A DNA stretch of 39,679 nucleotides from Streptomyces sp. NP160 (lineage in GTDB: Bacteria; Actinomycetota; Actinomycetes; Actinomycetales; Quadrisphaeraceae), in contig NZ_VDMJ01000054.1 of NCBI RefSeq assembly GCF_006335115.1, positions 1-39,679 on the forward strand. Direction: 5' to 3'. Positions 9,761-25,276 of this stretch are shown in pieces. Under the pieces are notes generated by a model, which had not been told where the DNA came from, did not search any database, and saw nothing but the letters and a program-made list of their open reading frames with translations. The first letter of the stretch is position 1; each line of letters begins with the position of its first letter. The position numbers and the translations under genes are program-made.

Positions 9761-9809
9761 GGGGCGGCTCCCGTCCTCTCGGTGCCCGCGCGGAGGCGGT
9801 GGTCGCGGC

Positions 9810-9826
9810 GTGCACGTCCGTGCACC
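9810..9826. promoter_or_regulatory. putative SorC operator between regulator 1 and glpD
   Basis: GTGCAC-GTCC-GTGCAC followed by C lies in the divergent intergenic region. TTGCCG (9830-9835) directly beyond it may be a weak -35 for glpD, so a protein bound here would touch that promoter. Confidence 0.6.
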
Positions 9827-9917
9827 AGATTGCCGCACCTCGGCGCTGCGCGCGATGGTCGTGGCCGCACCGCCCGGCCGCTCGAGGCCGACGGCCACCC
9901 GACGGAGAGGTCCCGCG

Positions 9918-11711
9918 ATGACGTCCTCCACCACCGCCACGGCCGCGGCTGCGGCCGCCACCGGCAGCACCGCGCTGTCGCCGGCCGCCCGCGACCGCGC
10001 CCTCGAGCGCCTGGCCGCCGGGACCCTCGACGTCCTCGTCGTCGGGGGCGGGGTCACCGGCGCCGGCGCCGCCCTCGACGCCGCCAGCCGCGGCCTGTCG
10101 GTCGGGCTGCTGGAGCAGCGGGACTGGGCCTCGGGCACCTCCAGCCGCGCCAGCAAGCTCGTGCACGGTGGGCTGCGCTACCTCGAGATGCTCGACTTCG
10201 CGCTGGTGCACGAAGCGCTGCAGGAGCGCGGGCTGCTCGTCGGGCGGCTCGCCCCGCACCTCGTGCACCCCGTGCCCTTCCTCTACCCGCTGCAGCACCG
10301 CGTGTGGGAGCGGGCCTACGTGGGGGCCGGCATCGCCCTCTACGACGCGCTCGCGGGGGTCTTCGGCCGCGTCGGGGGCCGCGGCGTGCCGCTGCACCGC
10401 CACCTGTCGCACCGGGCCCTGGCGCGCGTGGCGCCCTCCCTGCGCCCCGACGCCGCGGTGGGTGCGATCCGCTACTTCGACGCCAAGGTCGACGACGCCC
10501 GCTTCGTGGAGGTGCTCGTGCGGACCGCGGTCGGCCACGGGGTGGCCGCGGCCAGCCGCGTCACCGTCACCGGGTACCTCGAGGAGGGCGGCCGGGTCGC
10601 GGGGGTGACCGCCGTCGACCTGGAGACCGGCCGCGAGCTCCGGGTCCGCGCGCGGCACGTCATCGGCGCCACCGGGGTGTGGACCGAGCAGACCCAGGAG
10701 CTGTTCCGCGCGCAGGGCCTGCAGGTGCGCGCCTCCAAGGGCGTGCACGTCGTCGTCCCGAGGGACGCCGTGGCCGGGGAGGACGGCTTCATCCTCAAGA
10801 CCGAGAAGAGCGTGCTCTTCATCATCCCGTGGACCACCCACTGGGTCATCGGGACGACGGACACCCCGTGGGACCTCGCCAAGGACCACCCGGTGGCCAG
10901 CGCCGCGGACGTCGACTACCTGCTGGAGCAGGCCAACGCCGTGCTGCGGCGGCCGCTGACCCGCGACGACGTCCTCGGCGTCTGGACCGGGCTGCGCCCG
11001 CTCATCCAGCCCGTCTCCTCCGACGGCTCGGCCACGACCAGGGTCTCCCGCGAGCACACCACCGCCACCGTGCGCCCCGGCCTGACGGTCATCGCCGGCG
11101 GCAAGTACACGACGTACCGGGTGATGGCCCGCGACGTCGTCGACGTCGCCCTGGCCGACCGCGCCCCGGGCGACCCGGCCGGCGAGGTCCCCGCCTCGCT
11201 GACCGACCAGCTGCCGCTGGCGGGTGCGGACGGCTACGCCGTGCGCTGGAACCAGCGCCACCGCCTCGCCGCGGCCCGCGGCTGGAGCGAGGAGCGCGTC
11301 GTCCACCTGCTGCACCGCTACGGCGCGCTGGTGGACGAGGTGCTCGCCCTCGTCGACGCCGACCCCTCCCTCGGCGAGCCGCTGGAGGGCGCCCCGCACC
11401 ACCTGCGCGCCGAGGTGGTCTACGCCGCCACCCACGAGGGCGCGCTGCACCTGGAGGACGTGCTCACCCGCCGCACGCGCCTGTCCTACGAGCAGGCCGA
11501 CCGCGGCACCGCGTCGGCGCGCGCGGCCGCCGAGCTCGTGGCGGGCCCGCTGGGCTGGAGCGCCGAGCAGGTGGAGCAGGAGGTGTCCACCTACCTCGAG
11601 CGGGTCGCCGCCGAGCGGGCCGCCGAGGTGGAGCCCGACGACGCCTCCGCGGAGCGCGCCCGGCTGCGCGCTCCGGAGATCAGGCCGCTTCCGGTGGCCG
11701 ATCCCGCCTGA
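9918..11711 (+). CDS. glpD: glycerol-3-phosphate dehydrogenase (GlpD), copy 2
   Basis: This 597-residue FAD enzyme oxidises sn-glycerol 3-phosphate to dihydroxyacetone phosphate, with electrons passing to the quinone pool. The FAD motif is VVGGGVTGAGAALDAASRGL (about 40-60), followed by QRDWASGTSSRASKLVHGGLRYLE, IPWTTHWVIGTTDTPWD and IAGGKYTTYRVMARD. The C-terminal domain carries ATHEGALHLEDVLTRRTRLS. ATG 9918 has GGAGAGG 7 nt upstream; the alanine-rich first 20 residues are not conserved. It is first in glpD-glpF-glpK, so the glycerol role is well supported. It is clearly related to copy 1 (6957-8672), most visibly around the FAD motif and TTDTxW, but differs much in between, so the duplication is not recent. 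Confidence 0.95.
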   Translation: MTSSTTATAAAAAATGSTALSPAARDRALERLAAGTLDVLVVGGGVTGAGAALDAASRGLSVGLLEQRDWASGTSSRASKLVHGGLRYLEMLDFALVHEALQERGLLVGRLAPHLVHPVPFLYPLQHRVWERAYVGAGIALYDALAGVFGRVGGRGVPLHRHLSHRALARVAPSLRPDAAVGAIRYFDAKVDDARFVEVLVRTAVGHGVAAASRVTVTGYLEEGGRVAGVTAVDLETGRELRVRARHVIGATGVWTEQTQELFRAQGLQVRASKGVHVVVPRDAVAGEDGFILKTEKSVLFIIPWTTHWVIGTTDTPWDLAKDHPVASAADVDYLLEQANAVLRRPLTRDDVLGVWTGLRPLIQPVSSDGSATTRVSREHTTATVRPGLTVIAGGKYTTYRVMARDVVDVALADRAPGDPAGEVPASLTDQLPLAGADGYAVRWNQRHRLAAARGWSEERVVHLLHRYGALVDEVLALVDADPSLGEPLEGAPHHLRAEVVYAATHEGALHLEDVLTRRTRLSYEQADRGTASARAAAELVAGPLGWSAEQVEQEVSTYLERVAAERAAEVEPDDASAERARLRAPEIRPLPVADPA

Positions 11712-11779
11712 CCGCAGGAGGGTGCCTGCGAGCACCCGCCCCCACCAGCCGTCCACCGAGGAGGGCACCACCAGAGGGA

Positions 11780-11807
11780 GCCCCGCGCCGCGCGCGCGGC
11801 GCGGGGC
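11780..11807 (+). repeat. 28-bp perfect palindrome between glpD and glpF
   Basis: GCCCCGCGCCGCGC and its reverse complement abut with no spacer, 70 nt after the glpD stop and 25 nt before the glpF start. As RNA it would form a very stable hairpin that could attenuate read-through or stabilise mRNA segments. Confidence 0.6.
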
Positions 11808-11831
11808 CGACCGGGACAGAGAGGTCCGACC

Positions 11832-12566
11832 GTGTCACTCACCAACGTCTTCTTCTCCGAGGTGTTCGGCACCGCGCTGCTCGTGCTGTTCGGCGTCGGC
11901 GTCGTCGCGAACGTCCTGCTGGCGCGCACCAAGGGGCGCGGCGCCGACTGGCTGCTCATCAGCTTCGGCTGGGGACTGGCGGTCTTCGTCGGCGTCTTCG
12001 TCGCCTGGCGCTCCGGCGCTCACCTCAACCCCGCCGTGACGCTGGGGCTGCTCGCCTCCGGCACCGACAACTACAGCACCGAGGCGAACCCGGTGGCGGT
12101 GACCGCCGCCAGCACCGCGGTGTACCTCGTGGCCGAGATGGTCGGTGCCTTCATCGGCGCCGTCCTCGCCTGGGCCGCCTACCGCAAGCACTACGACGCG
12201 GAGGAGGACGGCGCCACGGTCCTCGGCACCTTCTCCACCGGACCGGAGATCCGCAGCTACGGCTGGAACCTCGTCACCGAGGTCATCGCCACCTTCGCCC
12301 TCGTCTACGTCATCCTGCAGTTCGGCAACACGCCCACGCAGGTCGGCCCGCTCAACGTGGCGCTGCTCGTGGTGGCGATCGGCGCCTCCCTCGGCGGCCC
12401 CACCGGGTACGCCGTCAACCCCGCCCGCGACCTCGGCCCGCGCCTGGCCCACGCCGTCCTGCCGATCCGGCACAAGGGCGGCGGCGACTGGGGCTACGCC
12501 TGGGTCCCGGTGGTGGGCCCGGTCGTCGGCGGGGTCCTCGCGGGCCTGGTCTCCCGGGTCTTCTGA
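11832..12566 (+). CDS. glpF: glycerol uptake facilitator (aquaglyceroporin)
   Basis: This 244-residue MIP-family channel has six membrane helices and the two half-helices with N66-P-A (HLNPAVT) and N196-P-A (AVNPARD). The aspartate after the second NPAR is the usual glycerol-channel residue, as in E. coli GlpF, rather than that of a strict aquaporin. It allows facilitated diffusion of glycerol and other small polyols across the cytoplasmic membrane. GTG 11832 has GAGAGG 8 nt upstream. It lies between glpD and glpK; phosphorylation by GlpK would trap the glycerol that enters. Small polyols such as erythritol might also pass, by inference from E. coli GlpF. Confidence 0.94.
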   Translation: MSLTNVFFSEVFGTALLVLFGVGVVANVLLARTKGRGADWLLISFGWGLAVFVGVFVAWRSGAHLNPAVTLGLLASGTDNYSTEANPVAVTAASTAVYLVAEMVGAFIGAVLAWAAYRKHYDAEEDGATVLGTFSTGPEIRSYGWNLVTEVIATFALVYVILQFGNTPTQVGPLNVALLVVAIGASLGGPTGYAVNPARDLGPRLAHAVLPIRHKGGGDWGYAWVPVVGPVVGGVLAGLVSRVF

Positions 12567-12630
12567 GGCCCTCCGCCGTCCCACCTGCTAGACCTCACGC
12601 ACGCTGCAACGACGCACAGGAGGAACCGAC

Positions 12631-14148
<1,518 letters not shown>

Positions 14149-14212: not shown

Positions 14213-15703
14213 TCAGGACGTGCTCGCGGCGAGCCGGTGCACCGCGCTCCGGCTCGCCGCCTGCAGCTCGGCGTAGGTGCGCGCCAGCTCGCGGTACTGC
14301 TCGTGGCGAGCAGCGTCGGGGACCACGACCCGCTCCGGGAGCGCCCAGTCGGTGCCCGCCGGGACGAGCCCCGCTCCGGTGGCCGCCAGCAGGGCGTCGC
14401 CGTAGCACGCGCCGACCGTCTGGCGCGGCACGTGCTGGACCCGACCCGTGACGTCGCTGACCACCTGCAGCCACAGGGGGCTGAGGGTGCCTCCGCCCAC
14501 CGCCACGAGGCGCTCGGGGGGCCCTGCGACGGCGTCGACGGCGGCGAGGACCTGCCCGACGGCCAGCGCCGTGCCCTCGTAGGCGGCGCGCACGAGGTGC
14601 CCTCGCCCGTGCCGCAGCGTCAGGCCGGCGATGACGCCTCGAGCGCTCGGGTCGTACAGCGGGGTGCGCTCCCCGGCGAAGTGGGGGAGCACGAGCAGTC
14701 CCTCAGCACCGGCGGGCACCGCACCGGCCTCGGCCAGCAGCTCGGACCAGGGAGCCCCGCCCGTGAGGGTGCGCACCCACTCGGTGAGCGAGCCGGCGGT
14801 GGCCGTCCCCCCGGACAGGGTGTAGCGGCCGGGGTCGGTGCCGCTGGTGGCCCAGACGTCGGGGCCGGTGAGCAGGCGGTCGAGCACCTGGACCACGAAG
14901 GCCGTCGAGCCGTACATCAGCATGGCGTCCCCGGGCGCGCGGACCCCGGCGCTGTGGGCCTCGGCCCACGCGTCGACGGTGCCCGCCACGACGGGCGTCC
15001 CGGGTGCCAGGCCGGTGGACGCAGCCGCCGCCGGGCTCACGGCGCCCACCACCTCGGCCGGCCACGCCAGGCGTGGCAGCGGCAGGCCGGGCGCGAGGTC
15101 CTCGGCCCAGTCGCGTGCCCAGGTGCGGGCGGGCAGGTCGTACAGCGGGTCGCACTGGCTGGCCGTGGGGTGGTCCTGGACGTGCTCCCCGGTGAGCTGC
15201 TCGACCACCCAGCTGCTCGAGCCGTGCCAGCGGGCGGAGGCGGCGTACGCCTCCGGCTCCTCCTCGCGCACCCACGCGATCTTCGGCCCCACCGCCTGGC
15301 TGCTCAGCGCCTTCCCGCAGCGGTCGAGCAGGGCCTGCGCGCCGTAGCGCTCCGTCAGCGCCGTGATCTGGGTGCTGGCTCGGGTGTCGATGCCGTACAG
15401 CACGGCGGGCCGCACGGGCCTGCCCCCGCCGTCGACGAGGAGCAGGCAGGGTCCCACCCCACTGACGGCCAGGGCGGCGACCCGGCTGGCCGGGACCGCC
15501 CGCCCAGGACCCAGGAGCTCGCGGCACAGCGAGACCACCTCGCTCCACCAGACCGCCTCGGCGTCCACCTCGGCCCACCCGGGACGGGGCAGGCTGATGC
15601 GGTGGTCGCGCCGGGCGCGGGCCACGACGACCCCGTCGGGCGTGGTGAGCACCGCCTTCGACGAGGAGGTGCCGAGGTCGATGCCCAGCACCACCTCGTC
15701 CAC
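14213..15703 (-). CDS. FGGY-family carbohydrate/polyol kinase (xylulokinase-like)
   Basis: This 496-residue protein has both actin-like domains of the FGGY family: N-terminal GIDLGTSSSKAVLTTPDG and a C-terminal ATP site with GGGTLSPLWLQVVSDVTGRV and a following GACYGDALLAATGAG. The middle has YGIDTRASTQI and the substrate-side GTVDAWAEAHSAG. These features resemble the xylulokinase-like branch rather than GlpK. Substrates in that branch include ketoses such as xylulose and, in some operons, erythrulose or erythritol; none can be assigned here. GTG 15703 has no Shine-Dalgarno but a TACCGT box 7 nt upstream, suggesting a leaderless transcript. It lies directly downstream of the ABC operon terminator and has a GTGCAC element against its promoter, linking it to the island's regulation. 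Confidence 0.88.
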   Translation of the reverse strand: MDEVVLGIDLGTSSSKAVLTTPDGVVVARARRDHRISLPRPGWAEVDAEAVWWSEVVSLCRELLGPGRAVPASRVAALAVSGVGPCLLLVDGGGRPVRPAVLYGIDTRASTQITALTERYGAQALLDRCGKALSSQAVGPKIAWVREEEPEAYAASARWHGSSSWVVEQLTGEHVQDHPTASQCDPLYDLPARTWARDWAEDLAPGLPLPRLAWPAEVVGAVSPAAAASTGLAPGTPVVAGTVDAWAEAHSAGVRAPGDAMLMYGSTAFVVQVLDRLLTGPDVWATSGTDPGRYTLSGGTATAGSLTEWVRTLTGGAPWSELLAEAGAVPAGAEGLLVLPHFAGERTPLYDPSARGVIAGLTLRHGRGHLVRAAYEGTALAVGQVLAAVDAVAGPPERLVAVGGGTLSPLWLQVVSDVTGRVQHVPRQTVGACYGDALLAATGAGLVPAGTDWALPERVVVPDAARHEQYRELARTYAELQAASRSAVHRLAASTS

Positions 15704-15797: not shown

Positions 15798-16808
15798 TCA
15801 TTGGGACATCGTGAAGGGCGCCGTGTACTGGTCGACGTTGTCCTTGGTGATGAGGACGCAGTCGAAGGCCTGCTTCTCCTCGCTCACGCCGGTCTCGCCG
15901 GTCTTGAGGAAGGAGTCCGCCTGCTTGACCGCCTCCTGGGAGAAGGTCACGACCGGCTGGAGCACGGTGTAGGACAGCGTCCCGGCCTTGATGGCGTCGA
16001 CCGCGTCGGGCGATCCGTCGAAGCCGCCGATGGCCTTCATCTGGCCGATCTGGCCCGACTCCTGCAGCGCGGCGATCGCGCCGAGCGCCATCTCGTCGTT
16101 GCCGGAGATCACGGCGTTGATGCCGGGGTTCGCCTGCAGCATCGCCTGCATCTTGTCGTGGCCCTCGGTGCGGTCCCAGTTCGCGACCTGCTCCGCGACC
16201 TCCTTCAGGCCCGGGTACTGCGACAGGACCGTCTGGTAGCCGTTGGAGCGCGTGGCGGCGTTGTTGTCGCTCGGGGCCCCCAGCAGCTCCGCGTACTGCC
16301 CGTCCTGGCCCACCAGCTGCGCCCACTGCTGGGCGCCCAGCGCGGCGCCCTGGGCGTTGTTGGACACCAGCTGGGCCTTGGCGATGCCGGTCTTGTTGAT
16401 CTCGGCGTTGATGAGGAAGACGGGGATGCCGGCGGCGTCGGCCTTCTGGACGGCCCCGACGGAGCCGTCGGCGTTGGCCGGGTCGAGCAGCAGGGCGACG
16501 GAGCCGTTCGAGATCGCGGTGTCGACGAGCTGGCTCTCGGTGTTCGTGTCACCGCGGTGCGCCGCAACCGTGGCCTTGTAGCCGAGCTCCTCGGCGGCGG
16601 CCTTGGCGGAGTCCCCCTCTGCTGCCCAGTACGGGTTGGAGGGGTCGTTGACGATGATCGTGATGAGGCCGCCGGCCGTCGACCCGCCCTCGGAGGAGGA
16701 GCCGGCGCCCGCGGACGCGGCGGGGTCGCTGCTGCCGCCCCCGCAGGCGCTGAGGGCGAGGGTGAGCACGCTGCCGCCGGCGATGGCGAGCAAGGACCTG
16801 CGCTTCAT
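15798..16808 (-). CDS. ABC transporter sugar/polyol-binding lipoprotein (RbsB/PBP-4 family)
   Basis: This 336-residue protein starts MKRRSLLAIAGG and has a lipoprotein signal with the lipobox LSAC (C22), followed by a Gly/Ser-rich linker and a two-lobed periplasmic-binding-protein fold of the RbsB type (IIVNDPSNPYWAAEGDSAK, ISNGSVALLLDPANADG, VISGNDEMALGAIAAL, IGGFDGSPDAVDAIKAG). It would be anchored to the outer face of the membrane and deliver ligand to the permease encoded just upstream. ATG 16808 has GGAAGGAA upstream. In Mycobacterium smegmatis a binding protein of this class, from a cluster with the same dehydrogenase and kinase types, binds threitol. A tetritol ligand is therefore the best guess, not a proof. 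Confidence 0.9.
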   Translation of the reverse strand: MKRRSLLAIAGGSVLTLALSACGGGSSDPAASAGAGSSSEGGSTAGGLITIIVNDPSNPYWAAEGDSAKAAAEELGYKATVAAHRGDTNTESQLVDTAISNGSVALLLDPANADGSVGAVQKADAAGIPVFLINAEINKTGIAKAQLVSNNAQGAALGAQQWAQLVGQDGQYAELLGAPSDNNAATRSNGYQTVLSQYPGLKEVAEQVANWDRTEGHDKMQAMLQANPGINAVISGNDEMALGAIAALQESGQIGQMKAIGGFDGSPDAVDAIKAGTLSYTVLQPVVTFSQEAVKQADSFLKTGETGVSEEKQAFDCVLITKDNVDQYTAPFTMSQ

Positions 16809-16905
16809 GGTGTTCCTTCCGAGGGGCGCCGGCGTCACCGACGGCGCTGTGGCGGGGTGGGCTGGGGCGTGACCGGTGGAGCGGGTGGAGCGGTCGGAGC
16901 GGCCG

Positions 16906-18048
16906 TCAGGCCCTCGCAGCGGTCCCGGAGGTCGGGGACGTCGGCGGGGGTGCCTGCCCCGCGCGGCCGGACCCGCCGGCAGCGGCGGGGCGCCGCCCGC
17001 CGCGGTACTGGACCGAGTTGAGGAGCACCGCGGCGACGATGACGGCGCCGGTGAAGACGGTCTGCCAGTAGACGGAGACCCCGACGATGACCAGGCCGTC
17101 GGACAGGAAGCCGATGACGAAGGCGCCGAGCAGGGTGCCGCGGACGGTGCCCCGCCCACCGGAGAGGGCGGCGCCGCCGATGACGACGGCGGCGATGGCG
17201 GTGAGCTCGTAGGTGGTCCCCGCGGTGGGCCCGGCGGAGGTCAGCTGCGAGGTGAGGATGAGCCCGGCGATCGCGGCGGTCACGCCGGAGACCACGTAGA
17301 CCCAGATCTTCACGCGCTTGACCGGCACCCCGGACAGCTCGGCGGCGCGCTCGTTGCCCCCGGACGCGTACAGCCAGCGGCCGAAGACGGAGCGGTTCAG
17401 GACGCCGGACAGCGCCACGGCCACGGCCACCATGACCAGGACCCCGATCGGGACCGTCGCGATGCGGTTGAAGCCGAGCCACGCGAAGCCGGTGTTGCCC
17501 AGGGCCTCGTCGCCCCCGAAGGAGTTGTACGTGAGCCCGTTCGTCATGAGGCTGGCGAGGCCGCGCACGGCGTAGAGCGTCCCGAGCGTCGCCACGAACG
17601 GCGCCACGTTGAACCGCGCCACGAGCACGCCGTTGACCAGCCCGATGAGGGCGCCGACGCCGATGGCGACGAGCGCCACCACCCACACCGGTGGGAAGAG
17701 CGTGACGGCGGCGCCGAAGGGTGACAGGTCGACCCCCTTCATGAGGAAGCCGGCGACCATGCCGGCCATCCCCAGCGTCGACCCGACGGACAGGTCGATG
17801 CCCCCGTTGAGGATGACGAGGAGCATGCCCATCGCGAGGAGCGCGTAGATGGCGACGTGCGAGGCCATGACGAGGACGTTGGAGACCGTGGGGTAGGCGT
17901 TCGGCGCGAGCGCGGAGAAGATCACGAAGATCGCGACGAGGGCCAGGAAGGCGCGGCCCTCGAGCAGCAGCGCACCGATGTCGGTGCGCCGCCTCGCCGG
18001 GGCGGGCGCGGGGGCGGGAGCCGGGGCTGTGGCGGTGGACGAGGTCAT
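16906..18048 (-). CDS. ABC transporter permease (RbsC/XylH family)
   Basis: This 380-residue protein has 8-10 membrane helices and the BPD_transp_2 pattern: NGGIDLSVGSTLGMAG, FVATLGTLYAVRGLASL, NERAAELSGVPVKRVK, and IGGAALSGGRGTVRGTLLGA, the coupling region that contacts the ATPase. It opens with an Ala/Pro-rich cytosolic stretch and ends with a disordered Pro/Gly-rich tail of about 35 residues. ATG 18048 has GAGGAAGGA upstream. Its ATPase is encoded 70 nt upstream and its binding protein 97 nt downstream, the usual importer order. It moves the bound sugar or polyol across the cytoplasmic membrane. Confidence 0.92.
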   Translation of the reverse strand: MTSSTATAPAPAPAPAPARRRTDIGALLLEGRAFLALVAIFVIFSALAPNAYPTVSNVLVMASHVAIYALLAMGMLLVILNGGIDLSVGSTLGMAGMVAGFLMKGVDLSPFGAAVTLFPPVWVVALVAIGVGALIGLVNGVLVARFNVAPFVATLGTLYAVRGLASLMTNGLTYNSFGGDEALGNTGFAWLGFNRIATVPIGVLVMVAVAVALSGVLNRSVFGRWLYASGGNERAAELSGVPVKRVKIWVYVVSGVTAAIAGLILTSQLTSAGPTAGTTYELTAIAAVVIGGAALSGGRGTVRGTLLGAFVIGFLSDGLVIVGVSVYWQTVFTGAVIVAAVLLNSVQYRGGRRPAAAGGSGRAGQAPPPTSPTSGTAARA

Positions 18049-18118
18049 GGGGGTCCTTCCTCGACGGCGAGGGGCGGCGCGGACAGCGGTGCGGAGCGGG
18101 CGGCGCCCGGTGCCGCGC

Positions 18119-19663
18119 TCAGTGGGTGGTCGCCTCGCCGGAGGCGGCCATGATCTGGTCCTTGCGGACGTCAGGTCCGAACTCGGCGGCGATGCGCCCA
18201 CGGGAGAGCACGACGATCCGGTGGGCGATGGCGAAGCACTCGTTGAGCTCGGACGTGGAGTAGACGACCGCGAGGCCCTCGCGCGCCTTCTCGGCCAGCA
18301 GGCGGAACACCTCGCCCTTGGCGCCGATGTCGATGCCGCGGCTGGGCTCGTCCAGCAGGATGACGTCCGGGCGGGTGGCGAGCACCTTGCCGATGACGAC
18401 CTTCTGCTGGTTGCCCCCCGACAGGGAACCGATCGGGGCGCTGCCGCCGGCGGTCTTGACGCGGACGCTGCGGATGCCCTCCTCCACCACCGCGCGCTCG
18501 CCGCGGCGGGAGACGACGGCGCCGCGCACGAAGGAGCGCAGCGAGGCCAGCGAGAGGTTCTGCCCGACGGTCATCGTCTGCACGAGCCCGTCGCGCTGGC
18601 GGTCCTCGGGGACGAGGCCCATGCCGCGCTCGATGCGCTGGGCGATGCTCAGCCCTGCGACGTCCTCGCCCTTGAGCAGGACCCGTCCGCCGGAGGTGGG
18701 GACCCGTCCGGCCAGCGCCTCGAGCAGCTCGGTGCGCCCGGCGCCCATGAGGCCGTACAGGCAGACCACCTCGCCGGCCCTCACGGTGAGGCTGAGGCGG
18801 TCGACCACCGAGCGGTCCGGGTTCTCGACGTCGGCGACGCTGACCTCGTGCACCTCCAGGGCCGGGGTGCTCAGCTCGTAGCCGGTGGGGGGCGTGCCGA
18901 GGTCGTAGGAGTCGCCCACCATCTGCCGCACGACCCACTCCAGGTCGATCTGCGAGCGGTGCGCCGCTGCCGTGATCGCGCCGTCGCGCAGGACCACGGC
19001 GTAGTCCGTGATCTCGAGGGCCTCCTCGAGGTGGTGGGAGATGTAGACGATCGACACGCCCCGCGAGGTCAGGTCGCGCACGACGCCGAAGAGGACCTCG
19101 ACCTCCGAGGCGGACAGCGCCGAGGTCGGCTCGTCCATGATGAGGATGCGCGAGTCGACGAGCAGGGCCCGCGCGATCTCCACCAGCTGCTGCTGCCCGA
19201 CCCGCAGGTCGGCGACCGGGGTGGCGGGGTCGATGGCCTGCCCCAGCTCCTCCATCACCGCGCGGGCCTGGCGGGTCTCCTCGGCGAAGTCGACGCCCGC
19301 CGGGCCGCGCAGCTCGCGCCCCATGAAGAGGTTGTCCCGCACGCTGAGGTTCGGCGCGAGGCTGAGCTCCTGGTGGATGATCGAGATGCCGCGGTCGCGG
19401 GCGTCCACGGTGCTGGTGATCTCGACGGGCTCGCCGTCCAGGACGATCTGCCCCGACGTCGGCTGGGTGACCCCGGAGAGGATCTTCATGAGGGTCGACT
19501 TGCCGGCGCCGTTCTCGCCGAACAGCGTGGTGACGCGCCCGCGGTGGACGTCGAAGGCGACGCCCTTGAGGGCCCGGGTGGCGCCGTAGGTCTTGACGAC
19601 GTCGCGCGCCGACAGCACCACCTCGTCCGCGGCGGGACCGCGGGAGGCCCCGGCGCCGCTCAC
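18119..19663 (-). CDS. sugar ABC transporter ATP-binding protein (RbsA family, two ATPase domains)
   Basis: This 514-residue protein has two ATPase domains. The first has Walker A GENGAGKST, signature LRVGQQQLVEIARAL and Walker B ILIMDEPTSAL. The second has a degenerate Walker A GLMGAGRTEL, signature LSGGNQQKVVIGKVL and Walker B ILLDEPSRGID. This is the normal state of RbsA/MglA-type ATPases. It powers the permease encoded downstream. The start is GTG 19663, which overlaps the TGA of the DUF2291 gene by 4 nt (GTGA), so translation of the two is coupled. Confidence 0.95.
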   Translation of the reverse strand: MSGAGASRGPAADEVVLSARDVVKTYGATRALKGVAFDVHRGRVTTLFGENGAGKSTLMKILSGVTQPTSGQIVLDGEPVEITSTVDARDRGISIIHQELSLAPNLSVRDNLFMGRELRGPAGVDFAEETRQARAVMEELGQAIDPATPVADLRVGQQQLVEIARALLVDSRILIMDEPTSALSASEVEVLFGVVRDLTSRGVSIVYISHHLEEALEITDYAVVLRDGAITAAAHRSQIDLEWVVRQMVGDSYDLGTPPTGYELSTPALEVHEVSVADVENPDRSVVDRLSLTVRAGEVVCLYGLMGAGRTELLEALAGRVPTSGGRVLLKGEDVAGLSIAQRIERGMGLVPEDRQRDGLVQTMTVGQNLSLASLRSFVRGAVVSRRGERAVVEEGIRSVRVKTAGGSAPIGSLSGGNQQKVVIGKVLATRPDVILLDEPSRGIDIGAKGEVFRLLAEKAREGLAVVYSTSELNECFAIAHRIVVLSRGRIAAEFGPDVRKDQIMAASGEATTH

Positions 19664-20355
19664 TGCGCGACCTCGAGCGTGGCGGGCGTGACGTTCCAGC
19701 TCTGCGGGTTGATGAGGGTGACCACGCCGGTGACCGTGATGGAGCGCCCGGTGAGGTCCTGGCCCGCCAGGGGGGCGAGCACCTGCTCCTTGAGCTGGTC
19801 GTTGAGCGCCGCCCCGGCGTCCTGGTACTGGATCTGGTTCTCGAAGTCGTTGAGCGAGACCTCGCCGGTGACGTCGCGCAGGTCCGTGCCGTTGATGGCC
19901 GGGCCGAGCTGGACGTGGACCAGGTACCCCTCGGGGACGCCGGGCACCGTGACCACCGGCAGGCCGGTCTGGTCGGGGGCGCCGACCGTGCCGGTGAACT
20001 CCACCGGGACGACCGCGCCGATGCCGCTGCTGCTCGCGACGCCGTACTGGGTGGCGGCGCCGGGGTCGGCCTGCAGGGCGGTGGCGAGCTCGGCGGCGTC
20101 CACGGCCTTCTCCTGCACGAAGGCCTGCACCTCCGGGAACTCCTCCTGGCCGTAGGCGGCGGCGTCGAAGGCGGCGGGACCGACGAGCACCTCGGAGTCG
20201 TTGGCGACCACCTTGGTGCTCAGGGCGGCGGCGAGGACCACCGCGAGCACGACGAGGCCCGCGACCAGGCGGCCGCGGCGGCCCCGGGACGACGGACCGC
20301 CTCGGGCTGCGCGGGGCTGGGCCGGCTGCGTCGCCGGGGGTGTGGCGGTGCTCAT
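19660..20355 (-). CDS. DUF2291-family secreted protein of a sugar ABC operon
   Basis: This 231-residue protein has a Pro/Ala/Arg-rich start, one membrane segment (about 29-48; GRLVAGLVVLAVVLAAALSTK) and an exported domain of about 180 residues. VGPAAFDAAAYGQEEFP, VEFTGTVGAPDQTGLPVV, VHVQLGPAINGTDLRD, and the NDFENQIQYQDAGAALN region are what I associate with DUF2291, which recurs beside RbsABC-like importers for polyols. No enzymatic motif is visible. It may be an accessory to the binding protein at the outer membrane face. ATG 20355 has GAGGAGG upstream. Its stop overlaps the ATPase start by 4 nt, and a hairpin separates it from the dehydrogenase gene. Confidence 0.78.
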   Translation of the reverse strand: MSTATPPATQPAQPRAARGGPSSRGRRGRLVAGLVVLAVVLAAALSTKVVANDSEVLVGPAAFDAAAYGQEEFPEVQAFVQEKAVDAAELATALQADPGAATQYGVASSSGIGAVVPVEFTGTVGAPDQTGLPVVTVPGVPEGYLVHVQLGPAINGTDLRDVTGEVSLNDFENQIQYQDAGAALNDQLKEQVLAPLAGQDLTGRSITVTGVVTLINPQSWNVTPATLEVAQ

Positions 20356-20425
20356 GGCTCGGCCTCCTCGGGTGCGGGTGGGTGGGGGCGTGGGCAGGGC
20401 GGGGCCCGCCCGGGCAGGCGGGGGC

Positions 20426-20460
20426 GCTCCGCCGTCGGGTCGGTGACCGGACGGCGGAGC
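20426..20460 (-). terminator. hairpin between dehydrogenase and ABC operon
   Basis: A perfect 11-bp inverted repeat (20426-20436 with 20450-20460) begins 14 nt after the dehydrogenase stop. It may lower read-through so that enzyme and transporter are made in different amounts. Confidence 0.5.
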
Positions 20461-20473
20461 CGGGGGCGGTGCG

Positions 20474-21565
20474 TCAGCCGGTGAAGCTGGAGTCCGGGAT
20501 CAGCGAGACCTTGACCGACGACGCGCCGCTGGCGACGAGGTCGAGGCCCTCCTGGAATCGGGACAGCGGCAGCTGGTGCGTGCAGATGCGGTCCAGGGGC
20601 AGGACGCCGGACTCGATCATCTGCACGGCCTTCGGCCAGGTGTGGGGACCGAGGTGCGCGCCGCGCACGTCGAGCTCCTTGTCGTCGCTGATGATCGACC
20701 AGTCGGCGCTGGCCTCGGCGCCGAAGACGCCGTACTCGACGTACGTCCCGAGCTTGCGCAGCAGGGTGAGGCCCTGCTTGACGGCGGCGGGGTGGCCGGT
20801 GCCCTCGAGGTACACGTCGGCGCCGAAGCCGCCCGTGAGGTCCCGCACGACGGCGTAGATGTCGTCGGAGGTGATGTCCAGGACGACGTCCGCGCCTGCG
20901 GCGCGGGCGAGATCGAGCTTGCTGGCGATGGCGTCGAGGGCGACGACCTTGGCGGCCCCCTTGGCCTTGGCGCCGGCGATCATGCCCAGGCCGATCGGCC
21001 CGCACCCGGCGACGACGACCACGTCCTCGAACTGGATGTCGGCGCGCTCCACGGCGTGCAGCGCGCAGGACAGGGGCTCGGCGAAGGCGGCGTGCGCGGG
21101 GGGCAGGTCCTTGGAGATCTTGTGGACGAGCGCCTTGGCGGGGAAGGCGATGTACTCGGCCATGGCGCCGTCGTAGGTCTTGAAGCCGTACATGTCGTGC
21201 GTGGCGCACATGTGGTAGGCGCCCCGCAGGCAGTAGCGGCAGTCCCAGTCGGGGACGATCTGCTCGCTGACCACGCGGTCGCCGACGGCCACGCCCCAGC
21301 GGGCCGTGGCCTCGTCGGAGATCTCGACCACCTCGCCGACCAGCTCGTGGCCGGGCACGCGGCCCTTCTCGGCCCAGGGGGCGCGGTGCTCGTCGCCCCA
21401 GAACTTCGCGGCGCCGTGGTAGCACTTGAGGTCGGAGGCGCAGATGCCCACGGCCTCCACCCGGACCAGCGCGCCGCCGTCCGGCAGCGCGGGGACCGGC
21501 ACCTGCTCGAGGCGGTAGTCCTCCGGGCCGTGGCAGACGACCGCCTGCATGGTTCCTGTCGTCAT
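20474..21565 (-). CDS. zinc-dependent polyol dehydrogenase (probable erythritol/L-threitol dehydrogenase)
   Basis: This 363-residue medium-chain dehydrogenase has catalytic zinc ligands C42 and H73-E74, and a structural zinc lobe with C109, C112 and C120 in which the first ligand is D106 instead of Cys. The NAD-binding motif is GCGPIGLG. YHGAAKFWGDE, YLEGTGHP and DWSIISDDKELDV resemble the erythritol/L-threitol dehydrogenase of Mycobacterium smegmatis as I remember it. That enzyme oxidises erythritol or L-threitol to erythrulose with NAD. ATG 21565 has GAGGAGG upstream. It heads the minus-strand transporter cluster and is divergent from SorC regulator 2. The promoter at 21618-21646 is flanked by TGCACC elements. 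Another polyol substrate cannot be excluded. Confidence 0.85.
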   Translation of the reverse strand: MTTGTMQAVVCHGPEDYRLEQVPVPALPDGGALVRVEAVGICASDLKCYHGAAKFWGDEHRAPWAEKGRVPGHELVGEVVEISDEATARWGVAVGDRVVSEQIVPDWDCRYCLRGAYHMCATHDMYGFKTYDGAMAEYIAFPAKALVHKISKDLPPAHAAFAEPLSCALHAVERADIQFEDVVVVAGCGPIGLGMIAGAKAKGAAKVVALDAIASKLDLARAAGADVVLDITSDDIYAVVRDLTGGFGADVYLEGTGHPAAVKQGLTLLRKLGTYVEYGVFGAEASADWSIISDDKELDVRGAHLGPHTWPKAVQMIESGVLPLDRICTHQLPLSRFQEGLDLVASGASSVKVSLIPDSSFTG

Positions 21566-21617
21566 CACGACCTCCTCGTCGTCCTGGGCCGCGTCGTCGC
21601 CGCCCCGTCGAAGCAGG

Positions 21618-21667
21618 ACAGTAGACAGACTCTGCACCGATGTCCAGCACGTCTGTGCACCGGTGCA
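21618..21667 (-). promoter_or_regulatory. promoter of the polyol dehydrogenase with operator elements
   Basis: On the minus strand TGGACA (21641-21646) and TACTGT (21618-21623) are 17 nt apart. TGCACC (21633-21638) lies in the spacer and the palindrome TGCACCGGTGCA (21656-21667) lies just upstream of the -35. The two TGCACC elements are 23 bp apart, about two helical turns. This is a likely site for the adjacent SorC regulator. Confidence 0.6.
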
Positions 21668-21717
21668 TCACGATCTGGTCTCCCGTCCAGGGCGGCGGCG
21701 TGCCAGGATCGTCGGTC

Positions 21718-22683
21718 GTGAGCGCTGGGGCGACGGAGGGGATCGGGCGCAGCCCTGACCACCTGCTGTACGCGGTGGCCGTCGAGTACTACCTCAAGGA
21801 CGCCACGCAGGCGGAGATCGCCCAGCAGATGCGCACGAGCCGGGCCACCGTGAGCCGCCTGCTGGCGGAGGCGCGCCGCCGCGGCATCGTCTCCATCGCC
21901 GTCCACCAGCCCGCCGACCAGCCCGACCACGACCTGGCGCTGGCCTGCGCCTCAGCGCTCGGGCTGGCGGAGGTGCACCTCTACCCCGACCTGCCGCCCG
22001 GCGCGCCGCACAGCATGCTCTCCACCGCACTGGCCCGCCCGCTGACGGTGGCCCTGCGGCAGGCGCACCTGGCGGCGGGGGACGTCCTGCTGGTGTCCAG
22101 CGGCCGGATGGTCTACGCCGCCGCGCACGGCGAGCTGCCCCCCCTGCCGGGGGTCCTGGTGGCTCCCACGGTGGGCGGTCAGCTGGAGCCCGAGCCGTGG
22201 TACCAGACCAACGAGATCATCAGGGCGTTCGCCGAGGCGGTGCGCGGCAACCCCGCGTTCCTCTACGCGCCGGCGCTGCCCAGCGCCGCGCTGCGCGAGG
22301 GGCTCCTCGACGACCCGGGCATCCGCCGCGTCGTCGACACCTGGGGCACGGCGGAGGCCGCCGTCATGGGCATCGGTGCACCGCCGCAGCAGCGGGTCTC
22401 GCTCCCGCACTTCGTGCCCGCGCACAGCGCTGCCCTCGACCGCGCGGTCGGCGACATCTGCTCGCGCTTCTTCGACCGCGACGGCGCCCCCGTGGACTTC
22501 CCGGGCAGCGAGCGCCTCATCGCCACCCCGTTGGAGCTGCTGCAGCGCATCCCCACGACCATCGCCGTCGCCAGCGGGCCGGAGAAGGTCAGCGCCATCC
22601 GCGCCGGGGCACGAGCCGGTTACTTCAAGCGCCTCGTGACGGACACCAGCACGGCGGCGCTGCTGGCGTCCAGCCCCGCCTGA
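21718..22683 (+). CDS. SorC-family transcriptional regulator 2
   Basis: This 321-residue protein has an N-terminal helix-turn-helix (about 15-60; YYLKDATQAEIAQQMRTSRATVSRLLAEARRRGIVSI) and a C-terminal SorC sugar-binding domain (AAGDVLLVSSGRMVY, LVAPTVGGQLEPE, VMGIGAPP, GDICSRFFDRDGAPVD, IAVASGPEKVSAIRAGARAGYFKRLVTD). SorC proteins sense a phosphorylated pathway intermediate; a tetrulose phosphate would fit the neighbours. GTG 21718 is chosen because homology starts shortly after it and AGGA lies 9 nt upstream. It is divergent from the dehydrogenase-transporter cluster and convergent with the isomerase and kinase genes, so it sits at the centre of the proposed regulon. Confidence 0.88.
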   Translation: MSAGATEGIGRSPDHLLYAVAVEYYLKDATQAEIAQQMRTSRATVSRLLAEARRRGIVSIAVHQPADQPDHDLALACASALGLAEVHLYPDLPPGAPHSMLSTALARPLTVALRQAHLAAGDVLLVSSGRMVYAAAHGELPPLPGVLVAPTVGGQLEPEPWYQTNEIIRAFAEAVRGNPAFLYAPALPSAALREGLLDDPGIRRVVDTWGTAEAAVMGIGAPPQQRVSLPHFVPAHSAALDRAVGDICSRFFDRDGAPVDFPGSERLIATPLELLQRIPTTIAVASGPEKVSAIRAGARAGYFKRLVTDTSTAALLASSPA

Positions 22684-22699
22684 GACCGGCGTCCGGGCG

Positions 22700-22750
22700 C
22701 CGGGGACCCCTGGTGCCCCTGCCGGCAGCGCGGTGGCCAGGGGTCCCCGG
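22700..22750. terminator. bidirectional hairpin between SorC regulator 2 and the isomerase gene
   Basis: A perfect 14-bp inverted repeat (22700-22713 with 22737-22750) has a 23-nt loop and fills the gap between two convergent genes. Confidence 0.75.
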
Positions 22751-22761
22751 TGCGGAGCGCC

Positions 22762-23286
22762 TCAGGCGACGTCGGAGTCCGCGGCCTCCCGCTCGGCGTC
22801 CTCCAGGGACCGCTCGCCGTCGGCGCCGTCGTCCTCGTAGGCCGTGATGGCGTCGACCTTGGCGGCGGAGGCGCTGGAGGTGTCGAAGGTGTACCCCAGC
22901 CACTCGCGGGCCAGGCGGCGGGCCAGCTCGATGCCGACCACGCGCTGGCCGAAGCACAGCACCTGGGCGTTGTTGCTCAGCACGGCGCGCTCCACCGAGA
23001 AGCCGTCGTGCGCGGTCACGGCGCGGATGCCCGGCACCTTGTTGGCGCTGATGGCCACGCCGAGGCCCGTGCCGCACACGAGCAGCGCGCGGTCGGCCTT
23101 CCCGTCCCGGATGAGACGGGCCGCGGCGACGGCGATGTGCGGGTAGGCCGTGTCGCCGTCGGCGTCCACGCCCACGTCGGTGACCTCCGAGACGCGCTCG
23201 TCACCCTGCAGGTCCTTCTTGAGGACCTCCTTGTAGTCGTACCCGGCGTCGTCGCTGCCGACGACGATCCTCAGCTGGTCAGCCAC
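22762..23286 (-). CDS. RpiB-family isomerase, probable D-erythrulose-4-phosphate isomerase
   Basis: This 174-residue protein of the RpiB/LacAB fold has the active-site C71 in CGTGLG, the H93-D94 pair and [10 protein letters not shown]. The usual substrate-binding DHAG of ribose-5-phosphate isomerase B is DDAG here (D12-D13). The mycobacterial erythrulose-phosphate isomerases also belong to this family, and the enzyme would turn D-erythrulose 4-phosphate into D-erythrose 4-phosphate for the pentose phosphate pathway. GTG 23286 has GAGGAG 8 nt upstream. It lies 69 nt downstream of the DhaK-DhaL kinase gene and is probably in the same operon. A plain RpiB acting on ribose 5-phosphate is the alternative. 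The acidic tail of about 25 residues is not conserved. Confidence 0.85.
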
Positions 23287-23355
23287 GTCCTGCTCCTCGT
23301 CCCTGTGGTCCTGTGCGTCCCCTACCCCCGTCGGGGCGGCTCAGCGGTCCTCCGG

Positions 23356-25119
23356 TCAGCGCCCCGCCAGCACGCCGGCCAGCACCTGGGCCACCATCCC
23401 CAAGCTGGTGGCACCGGCGTCCGGGGTGCCCTTGCTGCGCTCGGCCAGCGGCCTGGCCCGCCCCACCTTCGGCGTGAGGTCCTTCGTCGCGTCCGCGGCC
23501 TCCACGGCGCGGTCGGCGGCCACCGCCCACGCCTCGCGCAGCCGCCGGCCCGCGCCCACGCCCTCGTCCAGGGCGTCGCAGAACGGGCCCAGCGCGTCGA
23601 GCATCGTCTTGTCGCCGGGCTTCGCCCCGCCCAGCTCTCCCAGGCGGTCGTACCCGGCGCGGACGCCCGCGGCCACGGTCGCAGCGTCCGGTGCGGCGTC
23701 GTCGCCGACGCGCTTCGCCAGCGCTCCGAGCAGCTCGCCCCACAGCACGCCCGAGGTGCCCCCGGCGCGAGCCGCCCACTCGTCGCCCGCGGCCTGCAGC
23801 ACCGTGCCGGCGCCGGCGCCGGCCTCGGCCGCGGCCCGGGCGGCGTCGCGCGCGGCGGCGGAGCCGCGGACCATGCCGCGGCCGTGGTCGCCGTCGCCGG
23901 CCACCGCGTCGATGCGACCCAGCTCGTCCTCGGCCTGCGCCATCCGGTCGGCGACGGCGGCGAGCGCGTCGGCCACCAGCGCACCGGCGGCGCGGGAGCC
24001 CTCGTCCGCGGGACCGCTCGACAGCGGCGGCGCCTCGGCGTCGGCGGCGGCCTCGTCGTCGCTGCGCACAGCACCCTGACCGGCAGCGCCCTCGTCGTCC
24101 TGGACCGCCTCGACGAGCCGGCCCTTGCGGTAGGCGGGGGTGTCGGCGGGCGCGCCCCACAGGCGCTCCAGCTCGTCGTCGAGCCAGGTCAGCGTGAGGG
24201 AGCAGCCCGCCATGTCCAGGCTGGTGACCAGCTCGCCGACCTCGGGCTCCACCACCTCCAGGCCCCGCTCGCGCAGGAGGCGCGCCACGTCGTTCCAGAC
24301 GACGAAGAGCTCCTCGTACTTGGTGTTCCCCAGGCCGTTGAGCAGCGCCGTCACGCGCGCGCCCTCGACGGCCAGCCCCTCGGGGGCGTCGCCGAGGACG
24401 CCGTCGACCAGCGTGCGGGCCAGCTCGGCGGCGGTGGGCAGGTCGACCTCGTCGATGCCGGCCTCGCCGTGGATGCCCAGGCCCACGCTCATGCGGCCCT
24501 CGGGCACGGTGAAGAGCGGGCCGTCGGCGCCGGGCAGCGTGCAGCCGCTGAAGGCCACGCCCAGGGTGCGGGTGCGCTCGTTGGTCTTGAGCGCCACGCG
24601 CTCGACGTCGTCGAGGGACATGCCCTCCTCGGCGGCGGCGCTGGCGCACTTGAAGACCGGGACGTCGCCGGCGATGCCGCGGCGCTTCCCGTCCGCGCCC
24701 TTGCCGACCGAGGCGACGTCGTCGGTGACGGCGACGTAGCGCGCGGGGATGCCCTCGGCCTCGAGCCGCTCGACGGCCAGGCCGAAGTTCAGCACGTCCC
24801 CGGCGTAGTTGCCGGTGGTCAGCAGGACTCCGCCGCCGCCCGACGCCGCGCGGCCCACGGCGGCCGCCTCGGCCGCCGAGGGCGAGGTGAAGACGTTGCC
24901 CATCACGGCGCCGTCGGCGTACCCGGGGCCGACGATCCCGGCGAACGCCGGGTAGTGGCCCGAGCCACCCCCGACGACGACGGCCACCTTGCCCTCGCGG
25001 GTGCGCCGCCGGCGGACCACGCCACCGGGCACGTCCACCACGTAGGAGGAGAAGGCGTCGCAGAAGCCGGCCTTGGCGTCCTCGGCGAAGGCTGACGGGT
25101 CGTTGAACAGGCGGGTCAT
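23356..25119 (-). CDS. fused DhaK-DhaL kinase, probable D-erythrulose kinase
   Basis: This 587-residue ATP-dependent dihydroxyacetone-kinase-type enzyme has an N-terminal DhaK domain (about 1-330) with H217 in GLGIHGEAG, the residue that binds the keto group covalently, and GGGSGHYPAF. A low-complexity acidic linker (about 340-375) leads to a C-terminal DhaL domain (about 378-587) with the metal-binding aspartates D404, D409 and D411 (AGDGDHG). In Mycobacterium smegmatis a protein of this architecture phosphorylates D-erythrulose. Together with the dehydrogenase and isomerase this completes a route to erythrose 4-phosphate. ATG 25119 has GAGGA upstream. Dihydroxyacetone kinase is the alternative, but glycerol already has GlpK/GlpD here. 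The upstream gap has four GTGCAC elements. Confidence 0.87.
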   Translation of the reverse strand: MTRLFNDPSAFAEDAKAGFCDAFSSYVVDVPGGVVRRRRTREGKVAVVVGGGSGHYPAFAGIVGPGYADGAVMGNVFTSPSAAEAAAVGRAASGGGGVLLTTGNYAGDVLNFGLAVERLEAEGIPARYVAVTDDVASVGKGADGKRRGIAGDVPVFKCASAAAEEGMSLDDVERVALKTNERTRTLGVAFSGCTLPGADGPLFTVPEGRMSVGLGIHGEAGIDEVDLPTAAELARTLVDGVLGDAPEGLAVEGARVTALLNGLGNTKYEELFVVWNDVARLLRERGLEVVEPEVGELVTSLDMAGCSLTLTWLDDELERLWGAPADTPAYRKGRLVEAVQDDEGAAGQGAVRSDDEAAADAEAPPLSSGPADEGSRAAGALVADALAAVADRMAQAEDELGRIDAVAGDGDHGRGMVRGSAAARDAARAAAEAGAGAGTVLQAAGDEWAARAGGTSGVLWGELLGALAKRVGDDAAPDAATVAAGVRAGYDRLGELGGAKPGDKTMLDALGPFCDALDEGVGAGRRLREAWAVAADRAVEAADATKDLTPKVGRARPLAERSKGTPDAGATSLGMVAQVLAGVLAGR

Positions 25120-25157: not shown

Positions 25158-25276
25158 GTGCACAAGAGTGCGGAACAGGTGTGCACGGTGACTGTAGGGC
25201 CCCGCGGTGGGCGCCGTCACCCACTGGCGCCCCGGTGCCTCCGGGGGTGCACCGGTCGGCCGCTGCCCCTGTGCAC
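25158..25276. promoter_or_regulatory. cluster of four GTGCAC elements upstream of the kinase gene
   Basis: GTGCAC occurs at 25158, 25181, 25247 and 25271. The first pair is 23 bp apart and the second 24 bp, close to two helical turns. The elements flank the promoter at 25191-25219. About 0.07 copies would be expected by chance in this gap at this GC content (my estimate). Confidence 0.65.
25191..25219 (-). promoter_or_regulatory. probable promoter of the kinase-isomerase operon
   Basis: On the minus strand TGACGG (25214-25219) and TACAGT (25191-25196) are 17 nt apart. GTGCAC at 25181-25186 would lie on the transcription start and GTGCAC at 25158-25163 about 22 nt inside the leader, as expected for repressor sites. 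Confidence 0.5.

What the first reader, a model, noticed from the sequence alone, without database searches (positions are those of the whole stretch)
15798..25119. Complete candidate erythritol/threitol pathway with its own importer and regulator
A ribose-class ABC importer, DUF2291 protein, zinc-type polyol dehydrogenase, SorC regulator, fused DhaK-DhaL kinase and RpiB-type isomerase lie together. Each enzyme belongs to the family used in the Mycobacterium smegmatis tetritol route (polyol to erythrulose, to erythrulose 4-phosphate, to erythrose 4-phosphate). No part of that three-step chain is missing.
Basis: partly seen in the sequence, partly recalled or inferred. Interest (0 to 1): 0.75.

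Follow-up and report, generated by a model that had tools for sequence, protein, structure and literature searches.

The report
Mosaic erythritol-use gene cluster
An actinobacterial gene cluster that probably lets the cell import and burn the sugar alcohol erythritol, built from a mycobacterium-like enzyme set and a rhizobium-like importer under one shared genetic switch.

Summary
The genes are there as described: DhaK-DhaL kinase, RpiB-type isomerase, zinc dehydrogenase, DUF2291, ABC ATPase, permease and binding protein on the minus strand, with a SorC gene on the plus strand. The cluster is larger than reported. An FGGY kinase follows the binding protein, and a SorC-operator-like 27-bp site lies before each of the two operons, with no third copy in the 4.77-Mb genome at up to 3 mismatches.

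Best reading: erythritol uptake and catabolism, via D-erythrulose and D-erythrulose-4-P to D-erythrose-4-P. Two lines agree. The three enzymes are 65-84% identical to those of one cluster found in 4 of 6 Mycobacterium loci read. The importer is 70-75% identical to R. leguminosarum EryEFG, on which growth on erythritol depends there.

The combination is a mosaic. It occurs in 9 of 33 dehydrogenase-bearing genomes among 248 of the order; two genus members keep only the enzymes at the same site.

The threitol half is not supported: L-threitol would need LerI, absent from the cluster. New variant of a known kind; moderate interest.

The parts
14213..15703 (-). FGGY-family sugar kinase, 94 bp downstream of the SBP; role unknown, possibly for a pentulose
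   Evidence: Pfam FGGY_N/FGGY_C; best curated model XylB 262 of 380 bits, not met; best solved relatives 3ifr and xylulose kinase 2itm; near the dehydrogenase in 19 of 34 loci of the order
15798..16808 (-). EryG-like substrate-binding lipoprotein
   Evidence: 75% to R. leguminosarum EryG; 100/100 clade with rhizobial EryG; start codon is my choice
16906..18048 (-). EryF-like permease
   Evidence: 72% to R. leguminosarum EryF; BPD_transp_2; start codon is my choice
18119..19663 (-). EryE-like ABC ATPase
   Evidence: 70% to R. leguminosarum EryE; stop/start overlap of 4 bases with DUF2291
19660..20355 (-). DUF2291 membrane-anchored protein, first gene of the importer block
   Evidence: Pfam DUF2291; 46% to the R. 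leguminosarum one; found in the same 12 loci as ATPase, permease and SBP, of 45 searched
20474..21565 (-). EltD-like zinc polyol dehydrogenase, probably NAD-dependent
   Evidence: 71-72% to the Mycobacterium cluster; 46% to a protein annotated erythritol/L-threitol dehydrogenase; GHE and GxGPxG motifs
21633..21659 (+). SorC-type operator-like site between the dehydrogenase and SorC genes
   Evidence: 33.1 bits with a matrix made from other genera
21700..22683 (+). SorC-family regulator (ORF called from 21640; later GTG start more likely)
   Evidence: Pfam Sugar-bind; 50-56% to the Mycobacterium one
22762..23286 (-). DerI-like RpiB-type isomerase
   Evidence: 82-84% to the Mycobacterium cluster; catalytic CGTG cysteine kept; 45% to R. 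leguminosarum EryI
23356..25119 (-). Fused DhaK-DhaL kinase, LerK-like
   Evidence: 65-67% to the Mycobacterium cluster; tree; GIHGE, GDGDHG and GGTSG motifs
25159..25185 (-). Second operator-like site, before the kinase-isomerase operon
   Evidence: 19.7 bits, second in the window apart from reverse strands, with the matrix from other genera

Best explanation
A SorC-controlled regulon for erythritol. The DUF2291-EryE-EryF-EryG-type importer takes up erythritol (inferred from its clade). An EltD-like zinc dehydrogenase oxidises it to D-erythrulose, the fused DhaK-DhaL kinase makes D-erythrulose 4-phosphate, and the DerI-like RpiB isomerase makes D-erythrose 4-phosphate for the pentose phosphate pathway (inferred from homology). 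SorC binds a 27-bp site before each of the two operons and probably senses a sugar phosphate made by the route (sites shown by sequence; binding and effector inferred). The enzyme set is of the mycobacterial kind and the importer of the rhizobial kind, joined at one chromosomal place between glpK and a SURF1 gene.
For: Importer 70-75% to EryEFG with the same gene order and DUF2291 first; R. leguminosarum growth on erythritol depends on eryEFG (PMC3599248 passage); one 100/100 SBP clade of 11 rows, each row lying with rhizobial ery genes or with a LerK-like kinase. Dehydrogenase 71-72%, kinase 65-67%, isomerase 82-84% to the Mycobacterium cluster. EltD and LerK take erythritol to D-erythrulose-4-P, which DerI turns to E4P (PMC10733421 passages). 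Co-occurrence in 248 genomes: 31 of 33 dehydrogenase genomes have the kinase and 30 of 33 the isomerase. Operator before both operons, found by a matrix made from other genera. An RpiB-type isomerase is needed for full erythritol use in Yarrowia (PMC5992420 passages). The genome has another, housekeeping-type RpiB.
Against: No ligand or activity data. The actual M. smegmatis enzymes were not compared. Two of six Mycobacterium loci read (L113, L114) have kinase and isomerase without the dehydrogenase. The isomerase meets the model named ribose-5-phosphate isomerase (TIGR02133, 205 of 168 bits) and misses the rhizobial D-erythrulose-4-phosphate isomerase model (151 of 240). The closest solved SBPs are named ribose-binding. 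The FGGY kinase has no place in the route. The dehydrogenase family also sits in other contexts: 14 of 34 loci show no kinase in the stretch read. Co-occurrence tests ignore kinship.
Confidence: 0.72

Rival explanations
1. A dual tetritol and pentitol cluster, or mainly a pentitol one: the dehydrogenase oxidises xylitol, ribitol or D-arabitol to a pentulose that the FGGY kinase phosphorylates, with the erythrulose branch secondary.
For: FGGY kinase 94 bp after the SBP; FGGY near the dehydrogenase in 19 of 34 loci of the order and in the 4 Mycobacterium loci with the dehydrogenase; 6 of the 14 loci without kinase in the stretch have FGGY; solved relatives include xylulose kinase.
Against: FGGY is missing from L149, which keeps dehydrogenase, SorC, importer, kinase and isomerase. 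XylB model not met (262 of 380 bits). The importer clade is that of the rhizobial erythritol transporter, which in PMC3599248 goes with loci lacking pentitol genes, with one exception, M. ciceri.
Confidence: 0.15
2. A threitol cluster: D-threitol or L-threitol is the main substrate.
For: EltD also takes L-threitol; a second TIM-family gene, 46% to R. leguminosarum EryH, lies elsewhere in the genome and could act as LerI.
Against: No LerI-like TIM in the window, unlike the Arthrobacter plasmid and rhizobial loci. Importer far from 4rsm, recalled as the D-threitol binder. Importer clade points to erythritol.
Confidence: 0.06
3. Glycerol and dihydroxyacetone metabolism: an extra DHA kinase and ribose-phosphate isomerase beside the glp genes.
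For: glpF and glpK adjoin the cluster in the window and the four same-genus loci checked; the kinase meets the broad dihydroxyacetone kinase family model PRK14479 and the isomerase meets RPI_actino.
Against: The glycerone kinase equivalog is not met (345 of 575 bits). A second Dak1-Dak2 gene and a housekeeping-type RpiB exist. Kinase and isomerase co-occur (74 genomes of 81 and 77) and share the operator with the polyol dehydrogenase and importer.
Confidence: 0.05

Closest known systems
M. smegmatis tetritol route (EltD, LerK, DerI; the operon msmeg_3265-3273 is my recalled link)
   Same: Same enzyme families and order of chemistry; relatives in four Mycobacterium genomes have dehydrogenase 71-72%, kinase 65-67%, isomerase 82-84%, SorC 50-56%, FGGY 57-60%; operator-like site in the dehydrogenase/SorC gap of M. 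arenosum and M. wolinskyi
   Different: In M. arenosum the importer between dehydrogenase and kinase has SBP_bac_1 and BPD_transp_1 proteins, a CUT1-like set; here it is EryEFG with DUF2291. M. smegmatis itself not compared
Rhizobium leguminosarum erythritol locus (eryABCD, eryEFG, eryR-tpiB-rpiB)
   Same: Importer block DUF2291-EryE-EryF-EryG, same order, 46/70/72/75%
   Different: Catabolism there starts with a kinase; EryC and EryH have no match in the window, EryA only 29% to the FGGY kinase, EryB 32-34% to GlpD-like genes, isomerase 45%
Arthrobacter sp. FW306-07-I plasmid locus (NZ_CP084551)
   Same: EryEFG-type importer with DUF2291 (39-69%), kinase 54%, isomerase 70% together
   Different: Has a TIM-family isomerase, a DeoR regulator and two other zinc dehydrogenases (28-30%); no SorC and no EltD-like enzyme in the stretch

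Membership tests
EltD-LerK-DerI erythritol route (M. smegmatis type) | EltD-like dehydrogenase, LerK-like kinase and DerI-like isomerase in one cluster | tested here: met
   Same set in 4 of 6 Mycobacterium loci read, 65-84% identical; not compared with M. smegmatis itself
EltD-LerK-DerI erythritol route (M. smegmatis type) | Activities on erythritol, D-erythrulose and D-erythrulose-4-P | not testable with these tools
   Needs assays
EltD-LerK-DerI erythritol route (M. smegmatis type) | LerI for the L-threitol branch | tested here: not met
   No TIM match in the window at 1e-8; candidate only in trans, C1:34002-34745
EryEFG erythritol importer | EryG identity at the 73% cut-off of PMC3599248, gene order and DUF2291 first | tested here: met
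   74.7% over 289 residues to the R. leguminosarum WSM1325 protein, same order; clade
EryEFG erythritol importer | Erythritol binding and transport | not testable with these tools
   No ligand data
Rhizobial/Brucella kinase-first route (EryA, EryB, EryC, EryH, EryI) | EryA, EryB and EryC orthologues in the cluster | tested here: not met
   EryC no match; EryA 29%; EryB 32-34%, to GlpD-like genes outside the cluster
Curated D-erythrulose-4-phosphate isomerase (NF051858) | Score at or above cut-off | tested here: not met
   150.9 of 240 bits; TIGR02133 RPI_actino met instead
SorC-family regulon | SorC protein with the same operator before both operons | tested here: met
   binding itself not tested

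The most novel reading that the evidence does not exclude
DUF2291-EryEFG is a portable uptake block that serves two chemically different erythritol routes: kinase-first in Rhizobiales and dehydrogenase-first in Actinobacteria. In the window's genus it comes or goes together with SorC and its two operators at one chromosomal place, and DUF2291 is a required subunit of the importer.
Probability: 0.4. Interest if true: 0.5.

Novelty: new variant of a known kind. Interest (0 to 1): 0.4.

Why it matters
It joins the rhizobial erythritol importer and the mycobacterial erythritol enzymes in one cluster, so each supports the other's substrate assignment. It gives a small system in which DUF2291, still without a function, can be tested. 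LerI and DerI are also used in a synthetic formaldehyde pathway (PMC10733421 passages), so further homologues are of practical use. It is not a new kind of pathway.

Tried and rejected
Fold of DUF2291 from one sequence: mean pLDDT 40, useless, so no fold search was made. A viral-contig scan to deepen its alignment found no relative. M. smegmatis genome: no exact porin match in genome contigs (best 98% of 322 relatives, 80 listed) nor among 396 Mycobacterium genomes (best 99%); my recalled query may hold errors, so its absence is not proven; relatives were used. Idea that LerI is required and missing: dropped for erythritol. Idea that dehydrogenases beside the erythrulose kinase form one clade apart from FGGY-only ones: not borne out; contexts are mixed in the tree, whose bootstrap had not settled. 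One 9-row clade (8 genomes of family f14) lacks the kinase in the stretches read, yet 7 of these 8 have a full-length kinase match elsewhere and G429 a partial one. Papers on DUF2291: 0 in the held library. Other literature searches: all in CC-licensed PMC papers, so 'not described' means only these. Solirubrobacter genomes were already annotated with eryEFG (PMC10722151 passage).
Full report
OBSERVATION. The window is GC-rich (71-79% in 2-kb blocks) and lies on contig 137 of a 4.77-Mb genome (98.25% complete). Pfam and NCBIfam confirm every family named in the finding. On the minus strand come the DhaK-DhaL kinase (25119-23356) and the RpiB isomerase (23286-22762); then, after the plus-strand SorC gene (to 22683), a second minus-strand run: dehydrogenase (21565-20474), DUF2291 (20355-19660), ABC ATPase (19663-18119), permease (18048-16906), SBP (16808-15798) and FGGY kinase (15703-14213). 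Outside lie glpF-glpK on one side and a SURF1 gene and GMP synthase on the other.

IMPORTER. Of 264 plasmid records with a match to the SBP, the 40 listed, all rhizobial, show 74-77% identity. The annotated neighbourhoods in R. leguminosarum WSM1325 and Sinorhizobium sp. B11 hold RpiB, TIM, DeoR, SorC, TIM-barrel, G3P-dehydrogenase and FGGY-kinase genes, divergent from DUF2291-ATPase-permease-SBP (the ery names are mine, by order and family). Direct comparison gives DUF2291 46%, EryE 70%, EryF 72%, EryG 75%. Passages of PMC3599248 say that R. leguminosarum growth on erythritol depends on eryEFG, that a hypothetical gene stands at the start of that transcript, and that 73% was the cut-off for EryG homologues. 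An SBP tree of 20 rows puts the window, two genus members, five genomes of family f11, an Arthrobacter plasmid and both rhizobial proteins in one 100/100 clade of 11 rows. The closest solved SBPs are named probable ribose-binding (5ibq, 4ry0; E about 1e-84); 4rsm and 4rs3, which I recall as the M. smegmatis tetritol-binding proteins, are far weaker, E 5e-27 and 7e-26.

ENZYMES. M. smegmatis itself was not found. Six Mycobacterium genomes were searched with the kinase: four have a full-length match of 63-69%, one (G006) only weak partial matches, one (G003) none. Of the four stretches read, M. arenosum (L111) and M. wolinskyi (L112) hold dehydrogenase, SorC, kinase, isomerase and FGGY; M. senegalense (L113) and M. 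brisbanense (L114) hold kinase and isomerase without the dehydrogenase. Two further genomes, chosen for the best porin match, also hold the whole set. Over these four loci the identities are dehydrogenase 71-72%, kinase 65-67%, isomerase 82-84%, SorC 50-56%, FGGY 57-60%. In M. arenosum eight genes from dehydrogenase to an EamA protein were matched, with an unexamined 0.8-kb stretch between; this is compatible with the nine numbers of the M. smegmatis operon msmeg_3265-3273 named in PMC11303327 (passage). That msmeg_3265 is EltD and msmeg_3271 LerK is recalled. The kinase tree (29 rows) places the window kinase in a 98/97 clade of 11 rows with three of the four mycobacterial kinases given; L114 falls outside. 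The dehydrogenase is also 46% to a Providencia protein annotated erythritol/L-threitol dehydrogenase. Kinase motifs GIHGE, GDGDHG and GGTSG are in 28 of 28 relatives; the CGTG cysteine region is in all 29 isomerases and absent from the genome's other RpiB.

ROUTE. [quoted passage not shown] PMC12780249 (passages) speaks of three- or four-step routes in M. smegmatis. The window therefore holds the three-step erythritol route but not the L-threitol one. The TIM at C1:34002-34745, 46% to R. leguminosarum EryH, could supply LerI in trans; it also meets a triose-phosphate isomerase model.

DISTRIBUTION. In 248 genomes of the order the dehydrogenase is found in 33 (E at most 1e-100), the kinase in 81 (1e-130), the isomerase in 77 (1e-50) and the SBP in 17 (1e-85). 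Of the 33, 31 have the kinase and 30 the isomerase; kinase and isomerase coincide in 74 (Fisher tests there are not corrected for kinship). Besides the window I read 33 stretches around these dehydrogenases. Nine of 34 loci have the full combination with EryEFG: window, L148, L149, L154, L170, L171, L173, L174, L180; in L173 the isomerase lies just outside the stretch. Eleven have dehydrogenase and kinase without EryEFG. Fourteen show no kinase in the stretch, some cut by contig ends. The 9 SBPs of at least 58% identity are all in the nine loci; the other 8 (53-56%) have no dehydrogenase match in their genome, and 3 of them adjoin a kinase. DUF2291, ATPase, permease and SBP were found in the same 12 of 45 sequences searched.

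GENUS POLYMORPHISM. In the window and four genus members the cluster lies between glpK and SURF1. Window and L148 are complete; L149 lacks FGGY; L151 and L152 keep only dehydrogenase, isomerase and kinase, without importer, cluster SorC, FGGY or operator sites. A further genus member, G484, has none of the four proteins at the thresholds used. Whether the block was gained or lost is not known.

REGULATION. Reading the dehydrogenase/SorC gap and the region before the kinase side by side showed a shared 27-bp site. The pattern made from it fits exactly twice in the window (0.01 expected) and nowhere else in the genome at up to 3 mismatches; the reversed control gives none. The two hits are by construction; the absence of a third is not. 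The independent test is: a matrix learnt only from 13 dehydrogenase/SorC gaps of other genera ranks the window's gap site first (33.1 bits) and the kinase-side site second (19.7), leaving aside their own reverse strands (13.8, 13.7); the best unrelated place scores 3.7. At up to 4 mismatches there is no site in 12 of 12 examined loci without SorC, but also none in 12 of 29 loci with SorC, and in L172 only one away from the gap. Of those 12 the matrix was run on four (L168, L170, L171, L180) and gave 21-26 bits, at two places in three of them. B. subtilis SorC-family operators hold paired half-sites, and effectors there are sugar phosphates (PMC11229326 passages).

WEAK POINTS. The isomerase passes a model named ribose-5-phosphate isomerase and misses the rhizobial erythrulose-4-P isomerase model. 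The FGGY kinase has no place in the route. The dehydrogenase family has other contexts, such as L150 with another ABC importer and a DeoC-type aldolase. The dehydrogenase of the window and three relatives has Asp for the first structural-zinc cysteine. No activity was measured.

NOVELTY. Both halves are known separately, and eryEFG has been annotated in Solirubrobacter (PMC10722151 passage) and lichen bacteria (PMC11542873 passages). In the searches listed I found no paper that describes the mosaic or DUF2291 in this role. I rate it a new variant of a known kind.

Noticed in passing
window 8795-10177 (-) and 9312-14148 (+): A second SorC-family regulator frame lies beside a glpD-glpF-glpK run, so glycerol genes here may also be under a SorC-type regulator.
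   Followed up: no
window 7179-8594 (-): A second GlpD/EryB-like stretch (34% to R. leguminosarum EryB) besides the glpD at 10077-11531 (+).
   Followed up: no
G000 C1:34002-34745 (L014:9488-10330, -): A second triose-phosphate-isomerase-family protein, 46% to rhizobial EryH, beside unrelated genes: a possible LerI in trans.
   Followed up: partly
window 20474-21565; L148, L149, L154: The first structural-zinc cysteine of the dehydrogenase is Asp in these four, while 35 of the 36 other dehydrogenases in the set whose motif was found keep Cys or align with it; the four include two separate branches of the tree.
   Followed up: partly
L150 (G404 C1:599600-619500): A second dehydrogenase copy (86%) with its own SorC, another ABC importer and a DeoC/LacD-type aldolase: perhaps another polyol pathway using the same dehydrogenase family.
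   Followed up: partly
L170:2346-4548 (also seen as frames in L171, L180): In family f11 an SDR-like and a transporter-like frame stand between the SBP and the kinase, just after a second operator-like site.
   Followed up: partly
L005 (Arthrobacter plasmid NZ_CP084551): A plasmid typed as conjugative carries an EryEFG-type importer with kinase, isomerase and TIM genes.
   Followed up: partly
L181 (Salmonella enterica plasmid NZ_CP030220): An IncI1 plasmid carries a dehydrogenase of this family (48%) with DhaK, DhaL, RpiB, transaldolase, SDR, MFS and a sugar-binding regulator.
   Followed up: no
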